Assembly: GCF_005144585.1 (NCBI RefSeq)
Contig: NZ_SSMQ01000083.1
Span: 1-55,766 of the forward strand
From: Polyangium fumosum
GTDB taxonomy: Bacteria > Myxococcota_A > Polyangia > Polyangiales > Polyangiaceae
Length of the DNA: 55,766 nucleotides
Direction: 5' to 3'
Part shown: one piece after another, positions 5,328-55,644 of the stretch
How the letters are laid out: each line of letters opens with the position of its first letter
How positions within the stretch are numbered: the first letter of the stretch is position 1
Made by a program: the position numbers and the translations under genes
Notes under the pieces: model-generated
The model's database searches: none
The model's input: only the letters and a program-made list of their open reading frames with translations
What the model was told of the DNA's origin: nothing

Positions 5328-5333
5328 CCGAGC

Positions 5334-5354
5334 GGGGCGACCTCGTGTCGCCCC
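5334..5354 (+). other. Strong hairpin between rplF and rplR
   Basis: GGGGCGAC (5334-5341) pairs perfectly with GTCGCCCC (5347-5354) across a 5-nt loop. No U-tract follows, so it is probably not an intrinsic terminator. It could be an RNA-processing or pausing element within the spc transcript; that role is inferred from position alone. Confidence 0.45.
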
Positions 5355-5375
5355 TACAGGTACGGGGTTACGACC

Positions 5376-5735: not shown

Positions 5736-5821
5736 CCCCGAAGGCGCCGAGCCCGCGGGGGCCTCGGGCAAGACGTCTCGGGCGATAGCGAAGACTTCAC
5801 GGACGACGAAGAAGGCACGGT

Positions 5822-6427: not shown

Positions 6428-6633
6428 AGAGCCATCTCCGCGTGCGGCAGACGGGCAGCGTGACGAACCAGACGGAGCACACGCGCAAGGTTTTGCGGGG
6501 CCTCGGCCTCCGCAAGCCGGGCAATGAGGTGCTCGTGGCGAACACGCCCTCGTTCCGTGGCATGGTCAAGAAGGTGATCCACCTCGTTTCGGTCGAGGAA
6601 GTCGACGGCAACGGCGCGCAGGCGTCGAAGTAA
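6424..6633 (+). CDS. rpmD: 50S ribosomal protein L30
   Basis: L30 is a small 50S protein. The 69-residue product has the family pattern [20 protein letters not shown] followed by GLRKPGNEV and [16 protein letters not shown]. The start is GTG 6424, overlapping the rpsE stop by four bases (GTGA), which implies translational coupling. A short Ala/Gln tail extends the C-terminus. Confidence 0.94.
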
Positions 6634-6647
6634 GGAAGCGTAGCAGC

Positions 6648-7121
6648 ATGGACATCCTCTCGAAGCTTCAGGCCCCGGAAGGCGCCAACAAGAAGGAGAC
6701 CCGCGTCGGCCGCGGCGTGGGCTCCGGCCTCGGCAAGACCGCGGGCCGTGGCCAGAAGGGCCAGAAGGCCCGGTCGACGGGCAACATCGGCAAGAAGCAC
6801 TTCCAGGGCGGCCAGACCCCGATCCAGCGTCGCCTCCCGAAGCGCGGCTTCCGGAACCCGCTCGCGGCGATCGTCGCGAACGTGAATGTCGGCGACCTCG
6901 AGATCTTCGAGGCTGGCGCGGACGTGAACCAGGATGCGCTGGAGGGTAAGCGCCTGCTCCAGGGTCGTTACGACCTCATCAAGGTGCTCGGCGACGGCGA
7001 GCTCACGAAGAAGCTCACCGTGACGGCGCACCGGTTCTCGAAGAGCGCCATCGCCAAGATCGAGGCGGCGGGCGGCAAGGCGATCGTGCTTGCACCCGGC
7101 AAGGCTTCGGCGCAAGCCTAA
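6648..7121 (+). CDS. rplO: 50S ribosomal protein L15
   Basis: L15 is a late-assembly 50S protein. The 157 residues open with [20 protein letters not shown], continue with [31 protein letters not shown], and end with the [12 protein letters not shown] block of the Rossmann-like C-terminal domain. It lies 14 bp after rpmD and 45 bp before secY, the conserved end of the spc ribosomal genes. Confidence 0.96.
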
Positions 7122-7166
7122 CGTCCCTCCGGCTCGAGCCCCTCCAAGGCAGCACACCGACGTACC

Positions 7167-8495
7167 ATGGCCACACTCGCGGGAATTGCGAACTTCCACA
7201 AGGTCCCGGAGCTCCGGCGCAGGGTGATCTTCACCCTCGTGATGCTGGCCGTGTACCGCATCGGGGTCTTCGTCACGGTCCCCGGCGTCGATCGCGCCGC
7301 CATGTCGAAGTACATGGCGAAGCAGTCGGGCGGGCTGCTGAATTTCTTCAACATGTTCTCCGGCGGCGCGCTGGAAAACTTCTCCCTCTTTGCGCTCGGG
7401 ATCATGCCGTACATCTCGGCATCGATCATCATCCAGTTGATGGGCATGGTCTACAAGCCCATCGACGAGCTGCGCAAAGAGGGAGAGCAGGGGCGCCGCA
7501 AGATCGACCAGTACACGCGCTACGGCACGGTCGCGCTGTCGCTCTTCCAGGCGTACGGCAGCGCCAAGCTCGTCGAGGGCTGGTCGGCCTCGGACTCGGG
7601 GGCGGGCATCGTCACGCACCCGGGCCTCGGCTTCCAGCTCATGACGATGATCACGCTGACCACGGGGACGGCGTTCCTCATGTGGATCGGCGAGCAGATC
7701 ACGGAGCGCGGGATCGGCAACGGCATCTCGCTCCTGATCTTCGCGGGTATCGTGACGGGCGTGCCGGGCTGGGTGGGTAGTTATCTCGCGACGAACGCGG
7801 GTAACATCCAGCCGCTCACGATCTCTGCGGTGGGTGCGTTCGTCGTGGCGGCGATCGCGGTGATCGCGTTCTTCGAGAACGGGCGCCGGCAGATCCCGAT
7901 CGTGTACTCGCGTCGGCAGGTGGGGCGGCGCGTGTACGGCGCGCAGAACGCGCACCTGCCGCTCAAGGTGAACACGGCGGGCACGATCCCGCCGATCTTC
8001 GCCTCCTCGCTGCTCATGTTCCCCGCGACGCTGGCGAACATGAACGTGCCGGGCGCGGACAAGCTTCAGTCGATCATCAGCGGCGGCGGCTGGGTGTTCA
8101 ACACCGGCTACGCGCTCTTGATCGTGTTCTTCTGCTACTTCTACACGAGCGTCACGTTCCAGCCGGTCGACGTGGCGGAGAACCTCAAGAAGCAGCAAGC
8201 GAACATCCCCGGGATCCGCCCTGGCAAACAGACAGCGGACTACATCCAGGGCGTGATGAACCGCATCACGTTTGGCGGGGCGATGTACGTCGCTGCCGTG
8301 TGTGTCTTGCCGTCGGTGGTCGGCGACCTCCTGCGCGTGCAGATCACGTTTGGCGGGACGTCCTTGATGATCGTCGTGGGTGTTGCGCTGGATACGGTCA
8401 ACCAGATCGAGGCGCAGCTCATCACGCGCAGCTACGAAGGGCTCACCGGCCCTGGGGCGAGCCGCATTCGTGCGCGGCGCCTCCCCGAGGGATGA
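7167..8495 (+). CDS. secY: Preprotein translocase subunit SecY
   Basis: SecY forms the protein-conducting channel of the Sec translocon in the inner membrane. The 442 residues match the family length and ten-helix plan. Recognisable blocks include LRRRVIFTLVMLAVYRIG (first TM), the plug-region motif SGGALENFSLFALGIMPYIS with ASIIIQL, WIGEQITERGIGNGISLLIF, and LKVNTAGTIPPIFASSLLMFP with FTSVTFQP-like YTSVTFQPVDVAENLKKQ. It is followed 16 bp later by adk, as in many bacteria. Confidence 0.97.
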   Translation: MATLAGIANFHKVPELRRRVIFTLVMLAVYRIGVFVTVPGVDRAAMSKYMAKQSGGLLNFFNMFSGGALENFSLFALGIMPYISASIIIQLMGMVYKPIDELRKEGEQGRRKIDQYTRYGTVALSLFQAYGSAKLVEGWSASDSGAGIVTHPGLGFQLMTMITLTTGTAFLMWIGEQITERGIGNGISLLIFAGIVTGVPGWVGSYLATNAGNIQPLTISAVGAFVVAAIAVIAFFENGRRQIPIVYSRRQVGRRVYGAQNAHLPLKVNTAGTIPPIFASSLLMFPATLANMNVPGADKLQSIISGGGWVFNTGYALLIVFFCYFYTSVTFQPVDVAENLKKQQANIPGIRPGKQTADYIQGVMNRITFGGAMYVAAVCVLPSVVGDLLRVQITFGGTSLMIVVGVALDTVNQIEAQLITRSYEGLTGPGASRIRARRLPEG

Positions 8496-8511
8496 GAAGG
8501 GGGATCTTCGG

Positions 8512-9150
8512 ATGATCGCGATCTTGGTTGGTCCGCCCGGCTCGGGCAAAGGCACGCAGGCGAAGGTGCTCTGCGGCAAGTTTGGGATCCCGCAGATCTC
8601 GACGGGGGACATGCTTCGTGCGGCCAAGGGGGCCGGCACGCTCGATCCTCGTTACCGCGCGATCATGGACGCGGGTGGCCTCGTTCCGGACGAGGCGATG
8701 ATCGAGCTCATCGACAAGCGCATCGACGACGCGGACTGCAAGAAGGGCTTCTTGCTCGACGGTTTTCCGCGGACGGTGCCCCAGGCTGAGGCGCTCGAGC
8801 GTCTGCTTGCGGGTCGGGGCTTCACGATCGATGCTGTTTTGCAGCTTGATGTGGCGCGATCGCTCCTGGAGGAGCGCTTGATCCACCGTCGGACCGACAA
8901 AAGGTCTGGACAGATCTACCATCTCGTCTATAATCCGCCGCCCCCGGATGCCGAGCTAGAGCATCGGGCGGACGATCGGCAGGAGGCCGTCGGAAAGCGT
9001 CTCGATGCGTACGAGGCGATGACGGCGGCGCTCCTGCCCTACTACGAAGCAAAAGGTCTCCTCCGGCGTGTCGACGGTGTCGGCAAACCCGAGGAGGTCA
9101 CGGCGAGGGTGCTAGGGGCCCTTGGCCGAGTGCAGTCGGAAGAGTCATGA
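8512..9150 (+). CDS. adk: Adenylate kinase
   Basis: The enzyme interconverts ATP + AMP and 2 ADP in the cytoplasm. The 212 residues have the P-loop [12 protein letters not shown] at residues 6-17, the AMP-site [19 protein letters not shown], and a long-form LID region ([18 protein letters not shown]) without the four-Cys zinc site of some homologues. I start at ATG 8512, 16 bp after secY; a further upstream in-frame start would lie inside secY. The last four bases overlap infA (ATGA). Confidence 0.95.
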
Positions 9151-9401
9151 GGCGATCGAACCAAAGCTCGAAACCCGCAAAAGAACCGAAGGGCGACAAG
9201 CTCGAGTTCGATGGTGTCGTTCAGGAAGCTCTTCCGAACGCGATGTTTCGGGTGAAGGCCGACAATGGTCTCGGCGTGCTCGCGACCATCAGCGGCCGGA
9301 TGCGTCAGTACTACATCAAGATTTTGCCCGGCGATCGCGTTACGGTTGAGGTTTCGCCCTACGACCCGACGCGTGGCCGGATCACGTATCGTCACAAGTA
9401 G
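9147..9401 (+). CDS. infA: Translation initiation factor IF-1
   Basis: IF-1 binds the ribosomal A site during initiation. The 84 residues contain the OB-fold core [40 protein letters not shown], and [15 protein letters not shown], which are diagnostic. An extra Lys/Ser-rich 16-residue N-terminal stretch precedes the usual start. It overlaps adk by four bases; the map gene that often lies between adk and infA is not here. Confidence 0.95.
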
Positions 9402-9449
9402 ACCAAGCAGCCCAAGTAGCGGAGCGAGGACAGGGAACGGAGCCGCGAC

Positions 9450-9563
9450 ATGAAGGTGCGACCGAGCGTCAAGAAAATCTGCGACAAGTGCAAGGTGGTA
9501 CGCCGTCGCGGCGTCGTGCGCGTGATCTGCGAGAACCCTCGCCACAAGCAGCGTCAGGGCTGA
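9450..9563 (+). CDS. rpmJ: 50S ribosomal protein L36
   Basis: This is a 37-residue protein with the complete zinc-ribbon signature: CDKC, then Cys27 and a His in ENPRH. It begins [14 protein letters not shown] and ends HKQRQG, the standard L36 ends. The start ATG 9450 and stop TGA 9561-9563 lie between infA and rpsM in the conserved order. Confidence 0.96.
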
Positions 9564-9575
9564 GCTGGAGCAACC

Positions 9576-9956
<381 letters not shown>

Positions 9957-9979
9957 CGGGACGTTAGGAAGAGGACGCT

Positions 9980-10384
9980 ATGGCGAGTCCGAAGACGGCG
10001 GCCACCAAGGCCAAGCAGAAGAAGAAGGTCAAGAAGAACATCGCGGCTGGGATTGCGCACATCCAGTCGACGTTCAACAACACGGTCGTGACGATCACGG
10101 ACATCAACGGCAATGCCGTGGCGTGGTCGTCGGCCGGTGCGCGCGGGTTCAAGGGGTCGCGCAAGTCGACGCCCTTCGCTGCGCAGCTCGCTGCCGAAGA
10201 GGCGGCGCGGCGGGCGCAGGAGCACGGAATGCGGTCGGTGGCCGTATTCGTGAAGGGCCCTGGCGCCGGGCGCGAGAGCGCGCTCCGTGCGTTGCAGACG
10301 GCCGGCTTCAAGGTGACGTTGATCCGTGACGTCACGCCCATTCCGCACAATGGTTGCCGGCCGCCCAAGCGGCGCCGGGTCTGA
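9980..10384 (+). CDS. rpsK: 30S ribosomal protein S11
   Basis: S11 forms part of the platform and the mRNA exit/Shine-Dalgarno cleft. The 134 residues have a Lys-rich N-terminus ([19 protein letters not shown]), [18 protein letters not shown], and the conserved end [18 protein letters not shown]. It is followed after 36 bp by rpsD. Confidence 0.97.
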
Positions 10385-10420
10385 GGCAGCGCGCGCGGGA
10401 GTCCGCTCGAGGTTACGAAC

Positions 10421-11050
10421 ATGGCTCGCTACGTTGGTCCTGTCTGCAAGCTCTGCCGCCGCGAAGGCATGAAGCTCTACCTCAAGGGTGAGCGCTGCTA
10501 TTCGGAGAAATGCGCCTACACGCGGCGTCCTTACCCGCCTGGCCAGCATGGTCAGGGTCGTATCAAGCTCAGCGAGTACGCCGTCCGGCTCCGCGAGAAG
10601 CAAAAGGTGCGTCGCATCTATGGCGTTCTCGAGAGCCAGTTCCACGGCTACTTCCAGGAGGCGAGCCGTCGCAAGGGCCGCACGGGTGAAGAGATGCTGG
10701 CGCTCCTCGAGCGTCGCCTCGACAACGTCGTGCACCGGCTCGGTTATGCGGCGTCGCGCTCCGAGGCGCGTCAGCTCGTGCGCCACGGTCACGTGAAGGT
10801 GAACGGCAAGCGCCTCGACATCCCGAGCTTCGTGGTTCGGGTGGGCGATCGCGTGGACCTCACCGAGGGCGCGAAGAAGTTCAAGTTCGTGGCGGCCGCC
10901 GTGGCCGGCGCGGACAAGCGCCCGATCGCCTCGTGGCTCGATGCCGACCGTGGAGCGTTCTCGGGCTCGGTCAAGTCGACCCCGGTGCGCGAGGACCTCA
11001 ACGAGCCGGAGATCCGCGAGCAGCTCGTCGTCGAGTATTACTCGCGCTGA
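10421..11050 (+). CDS. rpsD: 30S ribosomal protein S4
   Basis: S4 nucleates assembly of the 16S 5' domain and in E. coli represses the alpha operon. The 209 residues contain the N-terminal metal-site segment with [18 protein letters not shown] and a further Cys (EKCAYTRR), [27 protein letters not shown], and the S4 RNA-binding domain block [20 protein letters not shown]. The four Cys suggest the zinc-binding S4 form. A terminator-like hairpin follows it. Confidence 0.97.
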
Positions 11051-11097
11051 TTTCCGTTCGCAGGTCGGTGGTTTTGCGGTGAATGTTTCGGAAAGCT

Positions 11098-11138
11098 GAT
11101 CGGGGGCGTGCGATGGAGCGCGGCCCCGATCGCTTTTT
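11098..11138 (+). terminator. Intrinsic terminator or attenuator between rpsD and rpoA
   Basis: GATCGGGG (11098-11105) pairs perfectly with CCCCGATC (11124-11131) and is followed by GCTTTTTG (11132-11139), giving a stem plus short U-tract. It lies 48 bp after the rpsD stop and about 115 bp before the rpoA start. It should reduce read-through from the ribosomal genes into rpoA-rplQ, which may then need their own promoter in 11139-11250. The function is inferred from structure. Confidence 0.6.
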
Positions 11139-11254
11139 GATTGCAGGAAAAAAGCGCCAACCGGCGCGACGCGGGCAGGAGACGGCTTCCGCGCACCGAG
11201 TGCGGTGACGGCAGCGAGATCTCCGCGCGAACCCCTCGAAGAAAGAGGACGCTG

Positions 11255-12298
11255 ATGACGATGCAAACCAGCGGAAGCATGACGATGATCGCGCGAAATT
11301 GGCGCGATCTGATCCGGCCGAAGGGCATCTCGATCGACACCGAGTCGTCGAACAACTTCTACGCGAAGTTCACCTGCGAGCCTCTCGAGCGCGGCTTCGG
11401 GATCACGATCGGCAACTCGCTCCGTCGCGTGCTCCTCTCGTCGCTGCAGGGCGCGGCGATCACTGCCGTCCGTATCGAGGGGGCGCTGCACGAGTTCACC
11501 ACGGTGCCCGACGTCGTCGAGGACGTCAGCGACATCATCCTCAACCTCAAGGAGGTCGTCTTCAAGGCGGCCGCCGCGCGTACCTACACGGTCCGCGTCG
11601 ACAAAGAGGGCCCGGGGCCGGTGTACGCGCGCGATATCCAGCTCGTCGACGGGCTCAGCGTGCTGAACCCCGACCACCTCATCGCGGTGCTCGACAAGAA
11701 GGGCCCGCTCGCGATGGAGCTGACGGTGAACGTCGGCCGCGGCTACGTGCCCGCGGAGCGCAACAAGACGCCGACGATGGCGATCGGAACGATCCCCATC
11801 GACGCGCTGTTCTCGCCCATCCGCAAGGTCAACTACACGATCCAGAACGCGCGCGTCGGTCAGGTGACCGATTACGACAAGCTGACGCTCGAGGTCTGGA
11901 CGAACGGTTCGGTGCTGCCCCAGGACGCGGTTGCGTTCGCTGCGAAGATCCTGAAGGAGCAGCTCTCGATCTGGGTCAACTTCGAGGAGTCGGAGGAGAC
12001 GAGCTACCAGACGGTGCCGGGCGACGAGGAGCCGCTGAACGAGAACCTCTTCCGTTCGGTCGAGGAGCTCGAGCTCAGCGTGCGCAGCGCCAACTGCCTC
12101 CAGAACGCGAACATCACCCTGATCGGCGAGCTCGTGCAGCGGACCGAGCAGGACATGCTCAAGACCAAGAACTTCGGTCGGAAGTCCCTGAAGGAGATCA
12201 AAGAGATCCTCGCGAACATGGGACTTTCGCTCGGTATGAAGATCGACAACTGGCCGCAGCTGCTCGAGCGCTGGAAGGCGCAGCAGGCGCAAGCCTAG
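11255..12298 (+). CDS. rpoA: DNA-directed RNA polymerase subunit alpha
   Basis: Alpha dimerises to nucleate RNA polymerase and its C-terminal domain touches UP elements and activators. The N-terminal domain shows [20 protein letters not shown] with [11 protein letters not shown]. The C-terminal domain shows [38 protein letters not shown] and [18 protein letters not shown] start at ATG 11255 because AGAGGA lies just upstream; the product is 347 residues, near the usual 330-340. It is followed 10 bp later by rplQ. Confidence 0.95.
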
Positions 12299-12308
12299 AG
12301 GGTGCGAT

Positions 12309-12875
12309 ATGCGTCATAAGAAGGCGGGGAGGCAGTTTGGTCGGGACACGTCGAGCAGGCGCGCGATGCTGCGCAACTTGACGGCGAACCTGATCACCCA
12401 CGAGCGCATCGAGACGACGGACGCGAAGGCCAAGGAGCTCCGTCGCGTCGCGGAGCGGCTCATCAGCAAGGCCATGCGCCTCGGCAAGGTCGCCTATACC
12501 GCGCAGAGCGAGCTGTCGGCGGCCGACAAGGCGCGCCGGCTCCACGCCGAGCGCCTCGTCGCGGCCTACGTGCCGCGCTTCGGCGTGAAGGCTGACGGCA
12601 CCAAGGTCGACGTCGTCGAGAAGGTGATGCTCGACCTCTCGAAGCGCTTCGAGGGCCGGCCCGGTGGTTACACGCGCATCATCAAGCTCGGCAATCGCCG
12701 CGGCGACAATGCGCCGATGGTCTACATCGAGTTCATCGATGCTGCCGCGGTGACCGACAAGCAGGCTCCCGAGGAGCCGGCTGCGGCGGTGACGGCCGAG
12801 CCCACGTCGGCCGCGTCGGCTTCGTCCGAGTCCGCCTCGACGGCGAGCTCCGGCGAGACCGCGTCGAACGAGTAA
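12309..12875 (+). CDS. rplQ: 50S ribosomal protein L17
   Basis: L17 lies near the exit tunnel. The N-terminal core MRHKKAGRQFGRDTSSRRAM, LRNLTANLITHERIETTDAK and the end block GYTRIIKLGNRRGDNAPMVYIE are diagnostic. The protein is 188 residues; the last 45 or so (Ala/Thr/Ser/Glu-rich) form an acidic low-complexity tail beyond the normal end. It is the last gene of the ribosomal supercluster and is followed by a terminator. Confidence 0.96.
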   Translation: MRHKKAGRQFGRDTSSRRAMLRNLTANLITHERIETTDAKAKELRRVAERLISKAMRLGKVAYTAQSELSAADKARRLHAERLVAAYVPRFGVKADGTKVDVVEKVMLDLSKRFEGRPGGYTRIIKLGNRRGDNAPMVYIEFIDAAAVTDKQAPEEPAAAVTAEPTSAASASSESASTASSGETASNE

Positions 12876-36355: not shown

Positions 36356-39034
<2,679 letters not shown>

Positions 39035-39150: not shown

Positions 39151-40281
39151 TCAGCCCGCGCCCTCGTCGAGCTCGCCCCGAAACACCCGGAAGTCACGAC
39201 GTCCCTCGGCCGGTATATCTTCGGCGCGGATGAGCTCGGGGCGCGTGGTCGTCAGGAAAATCTGACCACGATGGAGCGCAAGGAATGAAAAGAGCGCGCC
39301 GGTGCGCTCCGGATCGAGCTCGCTCGAAACATCGTCGAGCAAGAGCAAGGGCTCGATGCCCCGCTCTTTGGCGATCGTCGCCGTCTCGGCCGCCTTCAGC
39401 GCGAGCGTGAGCGCGCGATGTTGCCCCTGCGACGCGACGATCCGCGCCGGATGCCCGCCCAGCCGTAGCTCGAGCTCGTCGCGATGCGGGCCGAACCCCG
39501 CCGACGCCCGAAACGCATCCCGCTTTCGGCCCCGCTCGAGCTCGGCGCGCGCGGTCTCCACATCGACCGAGCCTCCCGGCGCGTATCGCGCTTCGAGCTG
39601 CAGGTCCGGCGCGGCGATTTGCGCGAACGCCCCCGCGAGCTCGACCACGAGCGCCTCGGCCGCCGCCGCGCGCGCCCGCGTGAGGGCCGCGCCATGCTCG
39701 GCGCAGAGCGCCTCGAACGCGTCGAGCTCACGGGTATCACTCGAAGGCATGTCCGCGCCGCGCCGCAAAAGCTCGTGCCGCGCTTTGAGCGCATGTGCAT
39801 ACCGCGCGCGCGCGTCCGCGCTCTCGGGCCGCGTGAAGAGCGCGAGCCGGTCGAGTAGCGTGCGCCGCCCCTGCGCGGGCCCGCTCGACAGCGTGAGCTC
39901 CTCGGGATGAAACACGACGACGGGCGAGCGCGTCGCGTACTCGACGAGCGAGCGCGGCCGATTGCCATCGATGTGCACGGCGACGCGCTTGCCCTGCACC
40001 GCGGCCGTCTGCTCGCGCGCGAGCGCCGGCAGCGCGCCGCCGCGCTCGACGAAGCGCGCCTTCACGCTCGCCGCCTGCTCGCCGTGCCGCACGAGCTCGC
40101 CCACGCGCGAGGTCCGAAAGCTCTTCGAGGTCGCCGCGAAGTAAATCGCCTCGAGCACGCTCGTCTTGCCGTGCCCGTTGTTGCCCCACACGACGTTGAG
40201 CCGCGGCGCGGGCTCCATGTCCACCCGCGAGAGGACGCGCAGGCCACGCACGCTGAGCCGTTCGAGCTCCAGGCGATTCAT
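39151..40281 (-). CDS. recF: DNA replication and repair protein RecF
   Basis: RecF is an ABC-type ATPase that helps load RecA on gapped DNA. The 376 residues have MNRLELERLSVRGLRVL, the Walker A GNNGHGKTSVLEAIYFAA (33 onward), FHPEELTLSSGP, the RecF signature segment ASQGQHRALTLALKAAE, and the Walker B LLLLDDVSSELDPER. It lies between dnaN and gyrB, as in many bacteria. Confidence 0.95.
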   Translation of the reverse strand: MNRLELERLSVRGLRVLSRVDMEPAPRLNVVWGNNGHGKTSVLEAIYFAATSKSFRTSRVGELVRHGEQAASVKARFVERGGALPALAREQTAAVQGKRVAVHIDGNRPRSLVEYATRSPVVVFHPEELTLSSGPAQGRRTLLDRLALFTRPESADARARYAHALKARHELLRRGADMPSSDTRELDAFEALCAEHGAALTRARAAAAEALVVELAGAFAQIAAPDLQLEARYAPGGSVDVETARAELERGRKRDAFRASAGFGPHRDELELRLGGHPARIVASQGQHRALTLALKAAETATIAKERGIEPLLLLDDVSSELDPERTGALFSFLALHRGQIFLTTTRPELIRAEDIPAEGRRDFRVFRGELDEGAG

Positions 40282-40378: not shown

Positions 40379-41503
40379 TCAAATCCGCATCGGCATGATG
40401 ACCGAAACGTAACTCTCGGCCGCCGACTCCGTCGCGGGACGGATGACCGCCGGGTCGAGTTCGCCCGACACGCCGAGGACGACCTCGTCGTCGTTGATGC
40501 CCGCGAGCACGTCGAGGAAGTACTTCGCGTTGAAGCCGATCGTCACCTCGCCGCCCTCGTAGTCGATCGGCACCTCGTCGAAGCCGTTGCCGCTCTCGGG
40601 GCTCTCGCTCGTGATGCGCAGCGCGCGCTGCGTGACCGTGAGCTTCACGCCGCCCGTGCGGTCGCTCGCGGCGAGCGAGACGGCGCGCAGGGCCTCGGCG
40701 AGCGGGGCGCGCGGCGCGCGGATGCTCCGGTCGCTCACGTTCGGGATGACCTGCTGGTAGGGCGGGAACTGCGCGTCGACGAGCTTCACCGAGAAGGTCA
40801 TGCCACCGACGCCGAAGAACGCGTTCGGGCCGCTCTGCGTGATGTGCACCGTGGGCGTCTCCTTGTCGACGCCGCTCGTGAGCCGACGCAGCTCGTGGAT
40901 GGCCTTCAGCGGGATGAGCATCGTCGCCGTCGCGCTCGTGCCCTCCAGCGTGACCTCCATCTTGGACAGCCGGTGACCGTCCGTCGTGACCATGCGGACG
41001 CGGTGGCCGGCCCACTCGAAGAGAGCGCTGTTCACGTGCGCGCGCGTCTCGTCGGTCGAGATGCTGAAGTGCGTGCGCTCGATGAGCCGCGAGAGCAGCT
41101 CGACCGGCAGCTCGAGCGAGGGCGCGTCGGGCGCGGCCTTGGGCAGGGCGGGGAACTCGCTGCCGGGCATGCCGTGCAGCGTGTAGCGGCGGGGCGAGCC
41201 GACGGCCTTGATGACGGTCTGCGCGCCCTCGCGCGCGGTCACCTGGATGGGCCCGTCGGGCATGGCCTTCACGCGGTCGAGCAGGTCCTTCGCCGGAACG
41301 GCCACGGAGCCTGCGCTCACGATTTCTGCCGCCGTCTGACCACTCACCGCGAGGTAGAGGTCGGTCGCGGCGACGCGCAGCGCGTTGCCGTCGGCGGCGA
41401 GCAGCACGTTGGCGAGCACCGGCATGGCGCTCTTCTTGTCGGCGACGCCCTGGCAGCGGTCGACGAGGCGCAGCAGATCTTTCTTCGCGATGACGAGGTC
41501 CAT
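40379..41503 (-). CDS. dnaN: DNA polymerase III beta subunit (sliding clamp)
   Basis: The clamp encircles DNA and tethers the replicase. The 374 residues match family length and pattern: LVIAKKDLLRLVDRCQGVAD, KSAMPVLANVLLAADGNALR, VATDLYLAVSG, GTSATATMLIPLKAI and the C-terminal SYVSVIMPMRI. It heads the dnaN-recF-gyrB group. dnaA, which usually precedes it, is not found upstream; a 520 bp region is there instead. Confidence 0.96.
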   Translation of the reverse strand: MDLVIAKKDLLRLVDRCQGVADKKSAMPVLANVLLAADGNALRVAATDLYLAVSGQTAAEIVSAGSVAVPAKDLLDRVKAMPDGPIQVTAREGAQTVIKAVGSPRRYTLHGMPGSEFPALPKAAPDAPSLELPVELLSRLIERTHFSISTDETRAHVNSALFEWAGHRVRMVTTDGHRLSKMEVTLEGTSATATMLIPLKAIHELRRLTSGVDKETPTVHITQSGPNAFFGVGGMTFSVKLVDAQFPPYQQVIPNVSDRSIRAPRAPLAEALRAVSLAASDRTGGVKLTVTQRALRITSESPESGNGFDEVPIDYEGGEVTIGFNAKYFLDVLAGINDDEVVLGVSGELDPAVIRPATESAAESYVSVIMPMRI

Positions 41504-41559
41504 GGCCCTTCAACTCCGCCGCGGCTCAAGGCAGCGGGTCGGTCCCTCTTAGCAGGGTT

Positions 41560-41860
41560 ATCGGCGGGGCGAAGGTCGAAAAGAGGACCGAGGCAAACGT
41601 GACCAGGCTCACGCGTTCCCCTCCGATCTAGGGAAGATCTTTAGATCTAGATCAGGTCGTCATCGTAGGGCCTGTGGACGATGGGGAAAACTCTGGATCG
41701 GTCCATCATTTCGATGACTTACGGTGCCACCCCCCTGTGGAAGGTTCGGGGAAACTTCGGGGTCGGGTCGGGGAGATCTTTAGGGGGGGGCGGCCGAGCC
41801 CGGTTCTGTCCCCAAGCCTGACCCTGGGATCACCGGAAGTTATCCCCAGCTTGCCCCCGC
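41560..41860. other. Candidate replication origin (oriC) upstream of dnaN
   Basis: The gap 41504-42025 contains no gene. It has an unusually AT-rich patch (41625-41660, with GATCT/AGATC repeats) and AGATCTTTAG occurs twice (41635-41644 and 41774-41783). DnaA-box-like 9-mers are TCGTCCACA (minus, 41673-41681, one mismatch to the high-GC consensus TTGTCCACA), CCTTCCACA (minus, 41736-41744) and TTATCCCCA (plus, 41840-41848). The neighbours dnaN-recF-gyrB and the parS sites 8-11 kb away support it. The boxes are degenerate and no dnaA is adjacent, so this remains a hypothesis. Confidence 0.45.
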
Positions 41861-42025
41861 TCGGGTGTATGCGCCGTGGCCTCGCCCGACAGACGGCGCG
41901 CGGATCGAACACGGTCGTGCGCGCCGCGTTCGGCGTGAGCTTCCGTCGTGGGAACGAAAACGCGATCGCCGAGCGATTTTGCAGTGGCCCCCCGCGTCGG
42001 AATGGCCGAACGTAGGGCTCTCGCG

Positions 42026-49521: not shown

Positions 49522-49557
49522 GCGGAATCGTACGGCAGCGTGCTCTACGCCTTCTGA
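49519..49557 (+). pseudogene. Remnant of an outer-membrane protein 3' end
   Basis: The plus frame reads TAESYGSVLYAF and stop (TGA 49555-49557). AESYG matches the AESYG at 47420-47435 of the intact gene, and SVLYAF matches its last residues, with about 110 bp missing between. At DNA level GAATCGTACGGC and the 21 bp repeat are identical to the intact gene. It is a broken copy, and its end overlaps the bioD stop. Confidence 0.6.
49533..49553 (+). repeat. 21 bp direct repeat, right copy
   Basis: Second copy of the 21 bp sequence at 47542-47562, on the other side of the three-gene cassette. It overlaps the bioD stop codon. Confidence 0.8.
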
Positions 49558-50246
49558 GTCTCGCCTTGGAGGGCGAGCGTCGAGAGCACCAGCTTCGCCG
49601 ACGCCCTCGTCTCCTCGGCCGTCGGCTCGGCCCGGGGAAACACGACCAGCCCCGGAACGATCTTCAACTCCACGAGCTCCTCCGCATTCGTCCCGGTGGA
49701 CGCATCCGCCACGGTCGGCGGCTGGAGCACGAGGAGCGGCGCCGGCAGGTCCGGGGCCATCGTGCGCATCGCGTGCAGCGTGACCGCGACATCATGGAGC
49801 ACGCCCAGCCGATCCGAAGCCACGAGCAGGAGGTGGTCGGGTCGCAGCGCGCGCGCGAGGTCCAGGTTGACGAGCCCCGACCCGAGCGGCGACAGCAACG
49901 CCCCCGCCGTCTCGATGACCAACACCTCCGCGCACGCATGCGCATCGACCCACTCGGTCACGCGACCGATGTCGATGCCCATTCCCAACCGACGCGCGGC
50001 GAGGTGCGGCGAGACCGGATCCGGCAGCGCGTAGGGCGGGGGATGTTTCACGTGAAACGTGCTGAACGCGGCAAGCGCGGAGGCGTCGGTCGTGATCGCG
50101 GGCGAGGGCGCGACAGGGACGCCGGACTCGATGGGCTTGAGGCCCGCAACCGAGACGCGGGCCGAGGCGAGGGCCGAGACGAGGGCGACACCCGCATGGG
50201 TCTTGCCGACCCCGGTGCCGGTTCCGATGACGACGATGCGGCTCAT
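49545..50246 (-). CDS. bioD: Dethiobiotin synthetase
   Basis: BioD closes the ureido ring with CO2 and ATP to make dethiobiotin. The 233 residues start MSRIVVIGTGTGVGKTHAGV, where GTGTGVGKT is the P-loop; GLKPIESGV and VIETAGALLSPLG are family motifs. The start overlaps bioF by four bases. A parS palindrome (50044-50059) lies inside the coding region and appears as TFHVKH at residues 63-68, a local quirk not expected from enzyme function. The last codons overlap the right 21 bp repeat. Confidence 0.92.
   Translation of the reverse strand: MSRIVVIGTGTGVGKTHAGVALVSALASARVSVAGLKPIESGVPVAPSPAITTDASALAAFSTFHVKHPPPYALPDPVSPHLAARRLGMGIDIGRVTEWVDAHACAEVLVIETAGALLSPLGSGLVNLDLARALRPDHLLLVASDRLGVLHDVAVTLHAMRTMAPDLPAPLLVLQPPTVADASTGTNAEELVELKIVPGLVVFPRAEPTAEETRASAKLVLSTLALQGETQKA
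50044..50059. other. parS site 1 (ParB centromere), inside bioD
   Basis: TGTTTCACGTGAAACG matches the near-universal chromosomal parS TGTTTCACGTGAAACA at 15 of 16 positions; the core GTTTCACGTGAAAC is a perfect palindrome. It is embedded in the bioD reading frame. Confidence 0.92.
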
Positions 50247-51364
50247 GGCTTCCAGCTCTCCGCGAAGGCAGCGACGATCCGAGAGAGGTCCGCGTCGGTG
50301 AGGCGCGCGTGGGCGGTGACGCGAAGGCGCGAGGTGCCCGGCGGCACGGTCGGCGGGCGAATGGCCTGCACGAGAATTCCGCGCTCGCGGAGGCGGAGGG
50401 AGATCCGAACGGCCTCCTCGGGAGGACCCACGAAACAAGGGAGGATGGGTCCATGCGAGGGGAGGAGCGCATCCCCGACGACGGAGGTGAGGTCGGCACG
50501 CAAGCGGCTGGTAACCCGGTCGAGTCGTGCCCGCGCTTCGTCATCGGACGCGACGCGGAGGACCCGATGCCGGATGGCCGCGGCGAGCGCAGGGCTGATG
50601 CCCGTCGAAAACACGAAGCTGCGCGCACGATTCCAGAGCCAGGTGCGAAGCACCATCGGCCCGGCCACGAACGCACCCTGAAGCCCGAGCGCCTTCCCGA
50701 GCGCACCCACGAGGACATCCGGTCGAACCCCAGCCCGCGCCGCGAGCCCGCGCCCGTCAGGTCCGAGGCTCCCGACCGCATGGGCCTCATCCACGATGAG
50801 CGCTGCATCCCACCGGTCACACGCAGCCCGGAGCCGAACGAGGTCGGGCGAATCGCCATCCATGCTGAAGTACGACTCGGTCACGAGCCACCGTCGCGGC
50901 GCCCCCTGCGCCTGCTCGAGCGCAGCCTCGGCGGCAGCCACGTCCCGATGAGGAACGACAACGACCTTGGCCCCGGAGAGGCGGCAGCCATCAATGATGG
51001 AGGCGTGGTTCAACGCATCCGAGACGATGACGTCCCCGGGCCGAGCGAGGGCCGAGAGGGTACCCACGTTCGCCGCATACCCGGACGAGAAGAGGAGCGC
51101 GGCTTCAAAGCCGAACCAGGTGGCGATCGTCTGCTCGGCGAGCGCATGTTCGGCATGATGCCCGCTGACGAGGCGTGACGCCCCAGCACCAGAAGGCACC
51201 TCCGCGGGCGCAGGCCAGGGATCGGTGCCGTACCCGAGGTAGTCGTTCGAGCAGAGGACGAGGCATCCCGCGGGCGGAGGCGCGCTCGGCTTGCGGAGCA
51301 GTCCAGCCTGTTCGAGCGCCGTGAGCTCCGCCGCAAGATGGCGAAGGGCGCCGAGGTCCGTCAT
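50243..51364 (-). CDS. bioF: 8-amino-7-oxononanoate synthase
   Basis: BioF is a PLP enzyme that condenses pimeloyl-ACP/CoA with alanine in biotin synthesis. From ATG 51364 (MTDLGALRHL) it has 373 residues, the usual size. Motifs: CSNDYLGY, GAGASRLVSGHHAEH, NHASIIDGCRLSGA, ESYFSMDGDSPDL, DEAHAVGSLGPDGRG, and the PLP lysine in LVGALGKALGLQGA. It overlaps zapA (upstream) and bioD (downstream) by four bases each. Confidence 0.94.
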   Translation of the reverse strand: MTDLGALRHLAAELTALEQAGLLRKPSAPPPAGCLVLCSNDYLGYGTDPWPAPAEVPSGAGASRLVSGHHAEHALAEQTIATWFGFEAALLFSSGYAANVGTLSALARPGDVIVSDALNHASIIDGCRLSGAKVVVVPHRDVAAAEAALEQAQGAPRRWLVTESYFSMDGDSPDLVRLRAACDRWDAALIVDEAHAVGSLGPDGRGLAARAGVRPDVLVGALGKALGLQGAFVAGPMVLRTWLWNRARSFVFSTGISPALAAAIRHRVLRVASDDEARARLDRVTSRLRADLTSVVGDALLPSHGPILPCFVGPPEEAVRISLRLRERGILVQAIRPPTVPPGTSRLRVTAHARLTDADLSRIVAAFAESWKP

Positions 51365-51684
51365 CGATCGTCCTCGTCGGGGGTATCGGCGCCGGGTTCG
51401 AGGGCGCCGAGGGCAGCATCCACACGTTCGAGCATGCGACCGAACGCGATGCGGGTGCGGGCCATCTGGTCGGTATGCCGAGCGCGCTCCTCTTCGAGGT
51501 CGTGAGCAAGAGCGAGGGCGGCAAGAAGGAGGGCCTGGGGGTTGACCATGCGGCCCGGACCAGCGACCTGGGTGAGCTTCTCCTCCACCATGAGGGTGAG
51601 GCGGTGGAGCTCGTCGTCGGACGCGGAGGTGACGACCCGGTATGTCTGACCGCTGATGCGGAGCTGGACCTGACGGCCACCCAT
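51361..51684 (-). CDS. zapA: Cell division protein ZapA
   Basis: ZapA promotes FtsZ bundling at the division site. From ATG 51684 (MGGRQVQLRISGQTYRV) it has 107 residues: a beta-strand N-terminal part followed by a long helix (MVNPQALLLAALALAHDLEE) and an acidic tail. The motif VTSASDDELHRLTLMVEEKL is characteristic. It is the first gene of a translationally coupled zapA-bioF-bioD unit, an unusual pairing of division and biotin genes. Confidence 0.85.
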   Translation of the reverse strand: MGGRQVQLRISGQTYRVVTSASDDELHRLTLMVEEKLTQVAGPGRMVNPQALLLAALALAHDLEEERARHTDQMARTRIAFGRMLERVDAALGALEPGADTPDEDDR

Positions 51685-51727
51685 GGCGGGGGGACGGTAC
51701 CATGAGGGGGGCCAGGATGCGAGGCGG

Positions 51728-51960
51728 GGAGGGAGCTCGGCGGGGGTGGTCACCCGGAGGGGCACGAAAGAGAACCGAGCGAGGTACACGCACGGTCAGG
51801 CCTCGCGAGGCAGTGCGGTGCCAGGGGTCACCCCGCTCCCGGACGCACCCACCCGAGCGAGACGTCCGGGCACCACCCCGCAAAGAACCCCACCCGTCCA
51901 AATCCAATCAGAACACCCCTGAGTGCCCCACCGGGTGGCCACCCCCGCCGAGCTCCCTCC
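51728..51960. repeat. Long inverted repeat, 30 bp arms
   Basis: The arm 51728-51757 and the arm 51931-51960 are inverted copies with a single mismatch in 30 bp, separated by 173 bp. The sequence between has no gene I can support. The region 51685-52055 otherwise holds parS site 2. Confidence 0.75.
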
Positions 51961-51992
51961 TGCGTCGATCTTTGGGGAGAGGGGCGAGGGGA

Positions 51993-52008
51993 TGTTTCAC
52001 GTGAAACG
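51993..52008. other. parS site 2 (ParB centromere)
   Basis: TGTTTCACGTGAAACG, 15 of 16 positions of the parS consensus, intergenic upstream of the envelope protein gene. It shares the flank GGGGA with site 3. Confidence 0.92.
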
Positions 52009-52055
52009 TGGGGGCTTGCTTGACGGGGTGGGGGAGGGTGGGCGATGGGAAGAAG

Positions 52056-52688
52056 ATGGAAAGCAGGCGGGCGTGCTTGCGAGGGTTTCGGTTGGGTAGG
52101 ACGGGACGGCGGGCGCTGGTGGGTGGGGCCGTGCTGGCGGGGTGCCTAGCGGTCGGGGCGGAGGCGCGCGCCGAGCCGCAAGGGACGGTCGGGCTGACGA
52201 TCGGTGCAGCCGGGCGAGGGCTCGATCGAAAGATTTGGGACCAAACAGCCTTCCACCTGGGGCTGCGGGGGGACGTGTTGTTCGGTCGGAGCAAGGTGAC
52301 CGACTTCGGCGTGGGACCCTATGCCGAGGTGATGACGCACGCCTTCGACGAGGTGCAGTTCGGCGCTGGGGTGTCGACGTTGTTCCCCGTGCTGCAAGCG
52401 CTGCCCCTCGTGGCCTCGGTGGGCGGGTACGGGCGGTACGCGCCGATGCAGGGGCTCGAGCCAGGGGTGGCGGGGGCGCTGTTCTGGGGGAGCCGCAGCT
52501 ACAACTTCCACGCCTCGTACGTCATGGCCTTCGGGCTGCTCGTGCAGTTCCGGTACGGGCTCGGTCCCTCGCGGGAGACCTCGATCGTCATCGGCGCGCA
52601 GCTCGACCTGGTGGCGTTGAGCTTGCCGTTCCAGCTCCTCTTCAACGCGGTGCGCGGAGGGTCGCGGGATACGAGACCCGTGCGGTGA
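52056..52688 (+). CDS. Exported envelope protein of unknown function
   Basis: I start at ATG 52056 (MESRRACLRG); an in-frame GTG at 52008 would fall inside parS site 2. The 210 residues have a signal peptide (RALVGGAVLAGCLAVGAEARA) and then alternating strands with aromatic residues (GVGPYAEVMTHAFDEVQFGA, SYNFHASYVMAFGLLVQFRY), which suggest a small outer-membrane barrel. A lipobox-like LAGC is present, but signal peptidase I cleavage after AEARA is equally possible. No family is recognised. Confidence 0.65.
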   Translation: MESRRACLRGFRLGRTGRRALVGGAVLAGCLAVGAEARAEPQGTVGLTIGAAGRGLDRKIWDQTAFHLGLRGDVLFGRSKVTDFGVGPYAEVMTHAFDEVQFGAGVSTLFPVLQALPLVASVGGYGRYAPMQGLEPGVAGALFWGSRSYNFHASYVMAFGLLVQFRYGLGPSRETSIVIGAQLDLVALSLPFQLLFNAVRGGSRDTRPVR

Positions 52689-52702
52689 CGGGTCCAGGGG
52701 GA

Positions 52703-52718
52703 TGTTTCACGTGAAACG
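52703..52718. other. parS site 3 (ParB centromere)
   Basis: TGTTTCACGTGAAACG, identical to sites 1 and 2, intergenic between the envelope protein gene and the next minus-strand lipoprotein gene. Confidence 0.92.
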
Positions 52719-52750: not shown

Positions 52751-53476
52751 TCAGGGGGTGCAGATCGGGTTCCCCTGGCAGGCGCGGCAGTCGACCCAGT
52801 TGTCGACGCCGGGTCGGCAAATGCCGGACGGGCCGTCGGCCGTGATGCTGCAATCCGCTCCGGGCACGAGTGGGTCGTTGGCCTCGCTCGGGAAGAAGAC
52901 CAGGCAGCCGCGGCAGACGTCGACCGGCCACTGGAACTCGCCGGTAGCGATCTCTTCACCGCCGAGGGTATGTCCACGAACGATGACGCGTGCGATGACC
53001 TCGACCGGGGGGCCATTCGCGACCGCCCCGGCCGCCGCCGAGCTGCCCGAGTCGATCAGCACGACATGCGCGATGCCATACCCCGGCTCGACGCCCGTCG
53101 ACGGGTCGGCGAACCCGGTGGCCGCCGCGGAGAAGGCGCCGAGCTCGTTGCCCGCCGAATCGAAGGTGTGGACGTCCGCGCTCTCGAACATGACGCGGGA
53201 GGTCTCCGTGCGAAGCGTCGCAGCATTGCCGCGCCGGACCAACTGGTTGCCGACCAGCAGCGCCGCGCTGTACTCGGTGCTGAACTCGACATCGAGGGCG
53301 CCGCGGAGCACGACCGGGGCCGAGGGTTCAGCCGAAACCTCGCAGGTATCTTCGGGGAACTTCAGGACCCCCCGGACGAAGAGGCTGCTCTCGTTCTCCG
53401 CGCATCCAGAACCGAGCAACGCGCCGAGCGCCAGAAGCGCGGTCAAACTGCCGACATGCCTTCGCTGGGTCTTCAT
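52751..53476 (-). CDS. Lipoprotein of unknown function
   Basis: From ATG 53476 (MKTQRRHVGSLTALLALGAL) the 241-residue protein has the lipobox GSGC. The mature part contains beta-rich stretches (GALDVEFSTEYSAALLVGN, IVRGHTLGGEEIATGEFQW) and a Cys-rich end (VDVCRGCLVFFP, CRACQGNPICTP) with paired cysteines that likely form disulfides. I know no family for it. It lies 81 bp upstream of the 5'-most base of aroKB's stop, in the same orientation. Confidence 0.7.
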   Translation of the reverse strand: MKTQRRHVGSLTALLALGALLGSGCAENESSLFVRGVLKFPEDTCEVSAEPSAPVVLRGALDVEFSTEYSAALLVGNQLVRRGNAATLRTETSRVMFESADVHTFDSAGNELGAFSAAATGFADPSTGVEPGYGIAHVVLIDSGSSAAAGAVANGPPVEVIARVIVRGHTLGGEEIATGEFQWPVDVCRGCLVFFPSEANDPLVPGADCSITADGPSGICRPGVDNWVDCRACQGNPICTP

Positions 53477-53557
53477 GTTGGAGGAGCCTCCCTCGACGCC
53501 TGAGGTCAACCATCAGTGTATCGGGAAAGGCCCCGAGCCGGCAAAGATCCGCAGGGT

Positions 53558-55189
53558 TCAGACGGAAGCGCTCTGCATCCCCGCATGAAGGAGGCGCCCC
53601 AGCGCGTCGAGCGAGAGGAGCTCGATGCGAGGTCGTCCGAGCCCTTCGAGGAGGACGACACGAATGCCCGCCACGGTGCGCTTCTTGTCGAGCGCGGCCA
53701 GGCGGATGGCCTCGTCGAGGGGCTCGCGCGAGAGGTCGGTGGGCAAGCCGAGGTCGACGAGGAGACGCTCGATACACGCCGCTGCCTCGGGATCGGTGAC
53801 GCCGAGGGCACGGCCAACCCGCAAGATGGCGACCATGCCGAGCGAGACAGCCTCGCCGTGGGTAAGCCGGGTGTACGCGCCAGCCGCTTCCAGGCCATGC
53901 CCGATCGTGTGGCCGAAGTTGAGCAGGACCCGATCGCCGGCCTCTCGCTCGTCCCGGGTGACGATCTCCGTCTTCACCCGGACCGCACCGAGGACCATCT
54001 CCCGAACGAGGTCGAGGTCACGCGCGAGGACACGCGTGCGCTCCCGGCCGACGAGGTCGAAGAGGGAGAGGTCGGCGATGGCCGCGGCCTTGACGACCTC
54101 GGCCAAGCCGGAGACGTAGGCCCGGGGGGACTCGCTCTGCACGCGCGCCGGGTCGATGAGCACGGCCGAGGGCTGGTGGAAGGTGCCAACGGCATTCTTG
54201 GCGACCCCGAGGTCGACGCCGGTCTTCCCCCCAACGGCAGCATCGACCATCGAGAGCAAGGTCGTGGGCATCGCGACCCACCGGACGCCCCGAAGCAAAA
54301 GGGACGCGGCAAACCCGGCGACATCGGAGACGACCCCGCCGCCGAGGGCAACGACGAGGCACTCGCGGTCCGCGCCCGACTCGACGAGGGCCGCGAGGAT
54401 GCGCTCGACCGCCGGGAGCTGCTTGTGCGGTTCACCGGGCGGAAGGACGACCGTGGCCGGGACGCGAAGGCCCGCGGTACGGAGGGACGCGAGGACCGGT
54501 TCGAGCGCGAGCGGCGCGACGTTCTCATCCGTGACGACGAAGACGGCGGAAGGCGCAAGGGTACACGCGACCTCGGCGAGGGTGCGCGGGGCGTCCTGGG
54601 TCAGGCGGACCGGGTAGGACCGAGGGCCGAGCGGGACGACGAGGGTGGGGTCGAGCCAAGCGCGGAGGACGGCATCGGCGACGTCCTCGGGGGAGCGATC
54701 GTCGGTGCGAATGTGGGCATGGGCCTCGGCGTAGACGGCCGCGCGGGAGGCAAGGAGGCTGCGGAGGCGCTGGAGGCGGTCGGGGGCTTCGTCGAGGAGG
54801 GGTCGACCGGGCGCTGCGGTGCGCGCAGCGAGGGTGTCGGGTCGCGCCGTGAGGGTGACGACGTGCGCGTGGGCAAGGGCAAACGCGCGGAGGTCCGGGT
54901 CGAGGAGGGTGCCGCCGCCGAGCGAGATGACACGAGGTTCCGAGGAGGCGAGGAGTCGACGAAGGGTGTCGGCTTCGAGGGCGCGGAAGGCCGGTTCGCC
55001 ACCAGGCTCCGCAAAGAGGGCCGGTACGGAGCGGCCGGTGGTCTGCGTAATGACGGCGTCGAGGTCGAGGAAGGGGACAGCCGCTTGGGCCGCGACGAGG
55101 GGGCCAATGGTGGACTTGCCTGATCCCATCAGTCCAGAGAGGAGGAGGGGACGCTGGGGGCGAGGCTGGGGAACGGGAAGCGGAGGCAT
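53558..55189 (-). CDS. aroKB: Fused shikimate kinase - 3-dehydroquinate synthase (AroK-AroB)
   Basis: One 543-residue frame encodes two shikimate-pathway enzymes. Residues 1 to about 170 are shikimate kinase: P-loop GLMGSGKST, DLDAVITQTTG, and SLGGGTLLD. Residues about 180-543 are dehydroquinate synthase: PPGEPHKQ, VALGGGVVSDVAGFAAS, MPTTLLSMVDAAVGGKTG, KNAVGTFHQP, NFGHTIGHGLEA and THGEAVSLGM with the metal ligands. The two domains are joined directly. I start at ATG 55189 (MPPLPVPQPR). Fusion of these two domains is known in several lineages. Confidence 0.93.
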   Translation of the reverse strand: MPPLPVPQPRPQRPLLLSGLMGSGKSTIGPLVAAQAAVPFLDLDAVITQTTGRSVPALFAEPGGEPAFRALEADTLRRLLASSEPRVISLGGGTLLDPDLRAFALAHAHVVTLTARPDTLAARTAAPGRPLLDEAPDRLQRLRSLLASRAAVYAEAHAHIRTDDRSPEDVADAVLRAWLDPTLVVPLGPRSYPVRLTQDAPRTLAEVACTLAPSAVFVVTDENVAPLALEPVLASLRTAGLRVPATVVLPPGEPHKQLPAVERILAALVESGADRECLVVALGGGVVSDVAGFAASLLLRGVRWVAMPTTLLSMVDAAVGGKTGVDLGVAKNAVGTFHQPSAVLIDPARVQSESPRAYVSGLAEVVKAAAIADLSLFDLVGRERTRVLARDLDLVREMVLGAVRVKTEIVTRDEREAGDRVLLNFGHTIGHGLEAAGAYTRLTHGEAVSLGMVAILRVGRALGVTDPEAAACIERLLVDLGLPTDLSREPLDEAIRLAALDKKRTVAGIRVVLLEGLGRPRIELLSLDALGRLLHAGMQSASV

Positions 55190-55250
55190 GGGGATTACGA
55201 TTCGATGGGGGAGAGGTTTTGTCGAGGTGGGAGTGTGCGCGGGGGGCGCG

Positions 55251-55495
55251 GAGGGGGCGCCGGGCGGCGTGAGGTCGGGGGGGCTGGGGGCCCCCCCCGA
55301 ACTCGCGAGCCACGCCGGACGGAGTGGAAGGAGGTCGAGGTTTTGGCAAGACCCGGGAGGGGATGGATGTCGCCCACCGGCTAGGTCACGTGGGTGACGG
55401 ATGGGGCGTGGGGTTTCCGGGAGGTAGGGCGTGGCTCGCTCAGACAACGGGTCCCCCCCCAGCCCCCCCGACCTCACGCCGCCCGGCGCCCCCTC
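55251..55495. repeat. Long perfect inverted repeat, 40 bp arms
   Basis: The arm 55251-55290 and the arm 55456-55495 are perfect inverted copies (40 bp), separated by 165 bp. Arms are G-rich on one strand and would form an extended hairpin. The region 55190-55696 shows no gene I can support. Confidence 0.75.
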
Positions 55496-55568
55496 TGGTC
55501 CCAGGGTGGGACAAAGCCCCCAGGTCCAGAAGAGAGGTGGGGTGGAGAGGAGGGCGATCAGAAGGGTG

Positions 55569-55644
55569 GAGAGGGTTCCCGGTACGACGAGCACCGCTAG
55601 GCGCATCGGTCGAGAGGGTTCCCGGTACGACGAGCACCGCTAGG
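55569..55644. repeat. 33 bp direct repeat, two copies
   Basis: The 33 bp sequence at 55569-55601 recurs identically at 55612-55644 (period 43). It lies just before the possible transposase start. The core is GGTTCCCGGTACGACGAGCA. Confidence 0.8.

What the first reader, a model, noticed from the sequence alone, without database searches (positions are those of the whole stretch)
50044..52718. Cluster of three near-perfect parS sites
The same 16-mer occurs at 50044, 51993 and 52703 in the same orientation with similar flanks. Chromosomal parS sites group near the origin, so the window is origin-proximal and could be a ParB loading zone.
Basis: partly seen in the sequence, partly recalled or inferred. 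Interest (0 to 1): 0.7.

Follow-up and report, generated by a model that had tools for sequence, protein, structure and literature searches.

The report
Myxobacterial chromosome centromere beside replication origin
These three short sequences are genuine-looking bacterial centromere sites (parS) next to what is probably the replication origin of a Polyangium myxobacterium; the sites are ordinary, but in close relatives the gene for the protein that reads them, and the initiator gene dnaA, lie megabases away, which is unusual.

Summary
Three copies of TGTTTCACGTGAAACG lie at 50044, 51993 and 52703, sharing 22 identical bases. The 12.98 Mb Polyangium genome has only four perfect copies of the 14-base core: these three and one beside aroC, at the end of a contig that probably adjoins this window. 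In close relatives all four share one contig.

They are very likely the chromosomal parS centromere. The genome encodes an ordinary ParA-ParB pair. parS has stayed at the biotin genes bioF/bioD across much of Polyangiales, often inside the reading frames: all 15 BioD proteins with FHVK at codons 59-64 use exactly the parS codons.

"Origin-proximal" is supported: the window also holds gyrB, a recF-like gene, dnaN, ribosomal operons, and a conserved region upstream of dnaN with DnaA-box-like sites, 8-11 kb from parS (candidate oriC).

The unusual part is elsewhere. In a near-complete Polyangium relative dnaA lies 1.25 Mb and parB 4.5 Mb from parS. In Minicystis rosea parB is 7.4 Mb from parS and 114 kb from a dif-like site; in two more genomes parB is almost opposite parS. 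A review places par operons in the origin domain. ParB binding and origin activity are inferred, not shown.

The parts
50044..50059 (+). parS site 1, inside bioD; the - strand reads FHVKH
   Evidence: position conserved in relatives
51993..52008 (+). parS site 2, between the inverted repeat upstream of zapA and the 226-aa ORF
52703..52718 (+). parS site 3, between the 226-aa and 252-aa ORFs
49545..50246 (-). bioD-like gene (Pfam AAA_26; name by resemblance and by its place after bioF)
50243..51364 (-). bioF-like aminotransferase (Aminotran_1_2)
51361..51684 (-). zapA (cell division protein)
51728..51960 (.). inverted repeat: 38-bp arms, 95% complementary, around 157 bp whose orientation is flipped relative to three other Polyangium
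52008..52688 (+). 226-aa ORF without Pfam match, with relatives at the same locus (true start may be downstream)
52751..53509 (-). 252-aa ORF without Pfam match, with relatives at the same locus
53558..55606 (-). aroK-aroB fused ORF (start uncertain)
55565..55644 (.). about 2 copies of a 43-bp repeat also found near the end of contig C2 beside the fourth parS; evidence that the contigs adjoin
41504..41947 (.). candidate oriC: conserved intergenic region upstream of dnaN with DnaA-box-like sites at 41673, 41682 and 41840
40379..41503 (-). dnaN (sliding clamp)
39151..40281 (-). recF-like gene (SMC_N)
36356..38950 (-). gyrB
575..12875 (+). part of the S10-spc-alpha type ribosomal operons (L22, S3, L14, L5, S5, L15, SecY, S4, RpoA, L17)

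Best explanation
The three sites, with a fourth beside aroC, form the parS centromere of this Polyangium chromosome. ParB, made from an operon on another contig (far away in relatives), is expected to load at parS as a CTP-dependent clamp, slide over the surrounding kilobases (bioFD, zapA, aroKB and probably the origin 8-11 kb away), recruit SMC, and be moved by ParA so that the origin region segregates first. The copy in bioD is kept at the DNA level, in a variable segment of the protein. Shown: the sites, their number in the genome, the parA and parB genes, conserved synteny, codon constraint, gene positions in relatives. Inferred: ParB binding, spreading, SMC loading, and that oriC lies upstream of dnaN.
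For: 4 perfect sites in 12.98 Mb and none with one mismatch. Four in each of the 4 other Polyangium genomes of the sample, within 5.8-6.8 kb in the three where all lie on one contig (G088, G098, G107). One ParB with N-terminal, HTH and C-terminal domains next to parA; its best PDB matches are ParB-family and chromosomal ParB chains. 27 of 42 bioF loci carry a perfect parS within the fetched flanks; in 20 of 30 fetched parS loci (30 of the 67 genomes with a site) bioF lies within 1.5 kb. Of 30 BioD hits, 15 read FHVK at codons 59-64 and all 15 use TTT CAC GTG AAA; Polyangium codon usage predicts about 0.5-0.8% per independent lineage. gyrB, recF-like and dnaN in the same window; dnaN within the flanks of 8 of 42 bioF loci. 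The candidate oriC is the densest box cluster of the window; 28 of 29,944 overlapping background windows reach its 3 boxes, none reaches the 4 seen in G098.
Against: No binding data. 48 of 115 genomes of the order have no perfect core; some may use a one-mismatch form. The boxes upstream of dnaA match the consensus better than those upstream of dnaN. Sampled GC skew does not locate the origin in G098, and in Minicystis its only fit below 5 in 100 contradicts this reading. The join of contigs C2 and C182 is inferred from relatives and a shared repeat. In G012 no dnaN match lies in the 20 kb fetched around parS. Two other proteins with a ParB_N domain exist in the genome and were not studied.
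Confidence: 0.88

Rival explanations
1. The sites are parS, but replication starts at dnaA, about 1 Mb away in relatives, so the centromere is not next to the origin.
For: Three DnaA-box matches (0-1 mismatch, one perfect) lie just upstream of dnaA in G098, and three (0-2 mismatches, one perfect) in Minicystis. dnaA is a common neighbour of oriC (general knowledge).
Against: dnaN, recF-like and gyrB stay with parS. The region upstream of dnaN is conserved across genera with box-like sites. Taking the dif-like site as terminus, the arms are more even for an origin at dnaN (43.8/56.2% in G098, 46.6/53.4% in Minicystis) than at dnaA (34.3/65.7%, 41.2/58.8%); computed from positions.
Confidence: 0.22
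2. The palindromes are operators of another DNA-binding protein, or ParB-binding sites for gene regulation, rather than the centromere.
For: Two of the three lie between genes. ParB binds hundreds of half-parS sites in P. aeruginosa (PMC7022226, passages read).
Against: Perfect core, only four in the genome, probably all at one locus, conserved in coding as well as intergenic positions, and no other perfect or one-mismatch site to serve as centromere.
Confidence: 0.04
3. The match arises from protein-level conservation of FHVKH or VSRET in biotin enzymes.
For: Those peptides recur at fixed positions.
Against: Two of the three window sites are intergenic. No BioD among 30 keeps FHVK at codons 59-64 with a synonymous codon, and BioD proteins without the site have other residues there.
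Confidence: 0.01

Closest known systems
Chromosomal ParABS of Myxococcus xanthus (PMC3899335, PMC3778016; passages read)
   Same: Clustered palindromic parS in the origin region, one ParA-ParB pair, another myxobacterium.
   Different: M. xanthus has 22-24 sites (consensus TGTTCCACGTGGAACG), the cluster about 4 kb from parA, and parAB about 35 kb from oriC. Here there are 4 sites of GTTTCACGTGAAAC at bioFD/aroKB, and parB lies megabases away in the relatives measured.
General chromosomal ParABS (review PMC7022226; passages read)
   Same: Same core motif, low copy number, clustering, origin-side location.
   Different: [quoted passage not shown] parB breaks this in four of the five relatives where it could be measured.
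Pseudomonas aeruginosa parS 'competence zone' (PMC5098823; passages read)
   Same: There parS must lie near oriC, in a zone of about 650 kb, for proper segregation.
   Different: The distance from parS to dnaA (1.25 Mb in G098, 0.86 Mb in Minicystis) would exceed that zone if dnaA marked oriC; an origin at dnaN removes the conflict.

Membership tests
chromosomal parS / ParABS | Perfect or near-perfect parS palindrome | tested here: met
chromosomal parS / ParABS | Few copies, clustered at one locus | tested here: met
   all four perfect sites at one locus in G088, G098 and G107; in the own genome three here plus one at a probably adjoining contig end
chromosomal parS / ParABS | Genome encodes ParA and a ParB with N-terminal, HTH and C-terminal domains | tested here: met
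chromosomal parS / ParABS | Sites in the origin domain | tested here: inconclusive
   favoured by gene content, conserved candidate oriC and position opposite a dif-like site; origin activity not measured and sampled skew uninformative in G098 and Minicystis
chromosomal parS / ParABS | par operon in the origin domain (usual, not defining) | tested here: not met
   in relatives: parB about 34%, 46%, 45% and 45% of the chromosome from parS in G098, Minicystis, G012, G030; in G101 parB is about 10% from dnaA. Not measurable in the own draft genome
chromosomal parS / ParABS | ParB binds the sites | not testable with these tools
   needs ChIP-seq or in vitro binding
DnaA-dependent oriC upstream of dnaN | Cluster of DnaA boxes | tested here: inconclusive
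   3 box-like sites with 1-2 mismatches; densest in the window, conserved in Polyangium; no site of the stricter TTWTNCACA form
DnaA-dependent oriC upstream of dnaN | Unwinding and initiation there | not testable with these tools
   needs marker-frequency sequencing or a plasmid assay

The most novel reading that the evidence does not exclude
In Polyangiales the centromere and origin stayed at the bioFD-dnaN-gyrB locus while parAB, and in Polyangium and Minicystis also dnaA, came to lie far away, parB in the terminus half (114 kb from the dif-like site in Minicystis rosea). Replication initiator, segregation genes and centromere would be uncoupled on the chromosome, with the lowest gene dosage for parAB and a centromere partly written inside a biotin gene.
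Probability: 0.65. Interest if true: 0.6.

Novelty: new variant of a known kind. Interest (0 to 1): 0.5.

Why it matters
It gives the centromere and a candidate origin of some very large bacterial chromosomes. It offers a natural test of whether parAB must be near oriC, and of whether parS must stay near dnaA or near oriC. A coding parS kept at the DNA level shows how a centromere can constrain a metabolic gene.

Tried and rejected
6S RNA idea for the inverted repeat beside zapA: rejected. No 6S match there (one search gave only one chance-level match to another family), and the best 6S candidate is elsewhere, C144, 44.9 bits against a cut-off of 46.4. My first reading that the interior of this repeat is merely divergent was wrong: it is inverted relative to three relatives.

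GC skew from 40 samples of 20 kb in each of G098, G012 and Minicystis (G115). G098: no significant fit (46 of 200 permutations; 20 to 43 of 100 for four measures). G012: raw skew 9 of 100 and, corrected for coding strand, 7 of 100; four-fold sites 0 of 100 both ways, origin 0.8 or 0.2 Mb and terminus 5.4 Mb on a 10.33 Mb circle, compatible with parS and dnaA at 9.8-9.9 Mb. Minicystis, 38 of 40 samples used because two held runs of N: raw skew 34 of 100, corrected 32; four-fold sites 2 of 100 but with origin 8.0 and terminus 10.3 Mb, the latter beside parS, which contradicts my reading and which I judge unreliable; corrected 7 of 100. Permutations used a coarser grid than the observed fit, so they are lenient. 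Leading-strand gene bias was also not significant in G098 (68 of 100) or G012 (24 of 100).

Strict DnaA boxes (TTWTNCACA): none in the window. Codon argument: loci with parS were chosen by their DNA, so I checked all 30 BioD hits for the peptide regardless of codons; L081 has FHVK with a TTC codon, but at codon 83.

Literature: searches (open-access library; listings mostly capped at 8-20 titles with abstract starts) showed no paper on parS or parAB position in Polyangiales; papers beyond the listed rows and subscription papers were not seen.

Full report
OBSERVATION. The three 16-mers are present at the stated coordinates, with 22 identical bases each. The genome (12,979,202 bases, 201 contigs; the window is the whole of contig C182) has four perfect cores, none with one mismatch and 22 with two; the reversed control pattern gives three in all. 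None of the 22 is the M. xanthus form GTTCCACGTGGAAC. The genus is Polyangium: BioF is 92-94% identical to three named Polyangium strains.

THE FOURTH SITE. It lies on contig C2, directly after aroC, 453 bases from that contig's end. In Polyangium 6x1, y55x31 and G098 the order aroC-parS-aroKB-252aa-parS-226aa-parS-zapA-bioF-bioD(parS) is on one contig. Both contig ends carry the same 43-bp repeat, 87-94% alike over 48-80 bases. So the two contigs probably adjoin and the four sites span about 6.2 kb plus any gap. G107 has the same site spacing as y55x31 and may be that strain, so the relatives are not all independent.

CONSERVATION. In 27 of 42 bioF loci there is at least one perfect parS within the fetched flanks. 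The 15 without are the seven with the lowest BioF identity (L084, L086-L091; 36-44%) and eight labelled as myxobacterial or deltaproteobacterial (L058-L062, L065, L075, L081); L065, L075 and L081 have a one-mismatch form in bioF. In the order, 67 of 115 genomes have a perfect core (52 of 86 good ones); the reversed control gives none in any of the 115. Thirty parS loci were fetched, one each from 30 of those 67 genomes: 20 have bioF within 1.5 kb and one more has zapA.

PARS IN CODING SEQUENCE. In bioD the site recurs near codon 60 as TTT CAC GTG AAA (FHVK) in 15 loci; one more locus has VSRET near codon 47 (L070) and one has FHVT (L071). All 15 proteins with FHVK at codons 59-64, of 30 BioD hits, use exactly those codons; TTT is 13-14% of Phe and AAA 12-17% of Lys codons in Polyangium. 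In bioF VSRET with the perfect core recurs at codons 44-65 in eight loci. BioD proteins without the site have other residues there, so the segment is variable.

PARAB. The genome has one match to the ParB family at E <= 1e-25, with N-terminal, HTH and C-terminal domains, beside parA and next to genes matching trigger factor, ClpP, ClpX and Lon. Two further ParB_N-domain proteins, weaker and longer, lie elsewhere. No parS within two mismatches lies in the 19 kb around parAB. All 30 ParB loci fetched across the order, G098 among them, have a ParA match beside ParB; for Minicystis, G012 and G030 only parB was located.

POSITIONS IN RELATIVES. G098 (Polyangium, contig of 13,235,919 bases): parS 12.902-12.908 Mb, dnaN about 12.914, dnaA 11.650, parB 8.384, dif-like 7.113. 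Minicystis rosea (16,040,666): parS 10.566, dnaN about 10.569, dnaA 9.704, parB 3.207, dif-like 3.094. G012 (10,327,335): parS 9.936, dnaA 9.822, parB 4.297. G030 (11.0 Mb): parS 8.225, dnaA 8.360, parB 3.237. G101 (2.8 Mb, rated 66% complete): dnaA 1.913, parB 2.178, perfect cores at 0.17 and 0.54 Mb: parB near dnaA, an exception, and parS far from both. In 103 of 115 genomes both dnaA and parB were found; they share a contig only in G012, G030, G098 and G101 (from the lists). Drafts cannot exclude linkage beyond contig length. In four drafts dnaA and parS share a contig at about 12-19 kb (G050, G059, G071, G105) while parB is on another contig.

DIF-LIKE SITE. TTTCGCATAAGATACATTATGTCAAC occurs once in each of 7 of 11 genomes searched (0-3 mismatches), with no control match. 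Its identity as dif rests on resemblance to the E. coli site (recalled) and on conservation; it was not tested.

ORIGIN. The window holds gyrB, a recF-like gene, dnaN, ribosomal operons and rho. dnaN lies within the flanks of 8 of 42 bioF loci, and near parS in G098. The region upstream of dnaN has 91% mean column identity among five Polyangium sequences and shares blocks, including TCCACA and TCCCCA elements, with Minicystis and two MAGs. It has the densest box cluster of the window. dnaA has its own upstream boxes, closer to consensus, in G098 and Minicystis. I favour oriC upstream of dnaN but cannot exclude dnaA or a split origin.

A FLIPPED SEGMENT IN THE CENTROMERE. Between parS site 2 and zapA, 38-bp arms enclose 157 bp. 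That interior is 88-90% identical to three other Polyangium on the opposite strand, while the flanks and those three relatives agree in orientation with each other. It has inverted between its arms at least once; whether it still switches is unknown.

COMPARISON WITH PRINT. M. xanthus: 22-24 parS in a cluster about 4 kb from parA, parAB about 35 kb from oriC (PMC3899335 and PMC3778016, passages). Review: par operons and most parS lie in the ori domain (PMC7022226, passages). P. aeruginosa: parS must lie in a zone of about 650 kb around oriC (PMC5098823, passages).

VERDICT. The arrangement is the interesting part: an origin-side centromere at biotin and aromatic genes, dnaA displaced in Polyangium and Minicystis, and parB in the terminus half in four of five genomes where it could be measured.

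Noticed in passing
51728-51960: 38-bp inverted repeats around 157 bp upstream of zapA; the interior is inverted relative to three other Polyangium (88-90% identity on the opposite strand), a candidate invertible element. It also folds far better than shuffles (z -6.6 here, -7.9 in G098); no Rfam family.
   Followed up: partly
47589-49449: Three genes on - (163 aa, HEAT-repeat 173 aa, 284 aa) of lower G+C between bioD and the 392-aa gene; in 6x1, 15x6, y55x31 and G098 bioD and the 392-aa gene directly adjoin, and the 284-aa protein has no match in the 42 bioF loci. Looks like an insertion.
   Followed up: partly
55565-55644 and L019:9607-9876: A 43-bp tandem repeat between aroC and aroKB; y55x31 has a different 42-bp repeat in the same interval.
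   Followed up: partly
C44:107241 of the own genome; L145, L147: Dif-like sequence, once per genome in 7 of 11 genomes searched; possible XerCD site of Polyangiaceae.
   Followed up: partly
L065, L075, L081 (bioF); G057 and G063: GTTTCACGTGCAAC, a one-mismatch parS at codons 49-50 of bioF in three loci, and once in each of two genomes without a perfect core; possible variant parS.
   Followed up: partly
44673-47566: Two adjacent predicted proteins (573 and 392 aa) without Pfam match lie between bioD and an ABC gene in Polyangium; no match in Minicystis locus L055.
   Followed up: no
C144:95203-95392 of the own genome: 6S RNA candidate just under Rfam's cut-off (44.9 against 46.4 bits).
   Followed up: no
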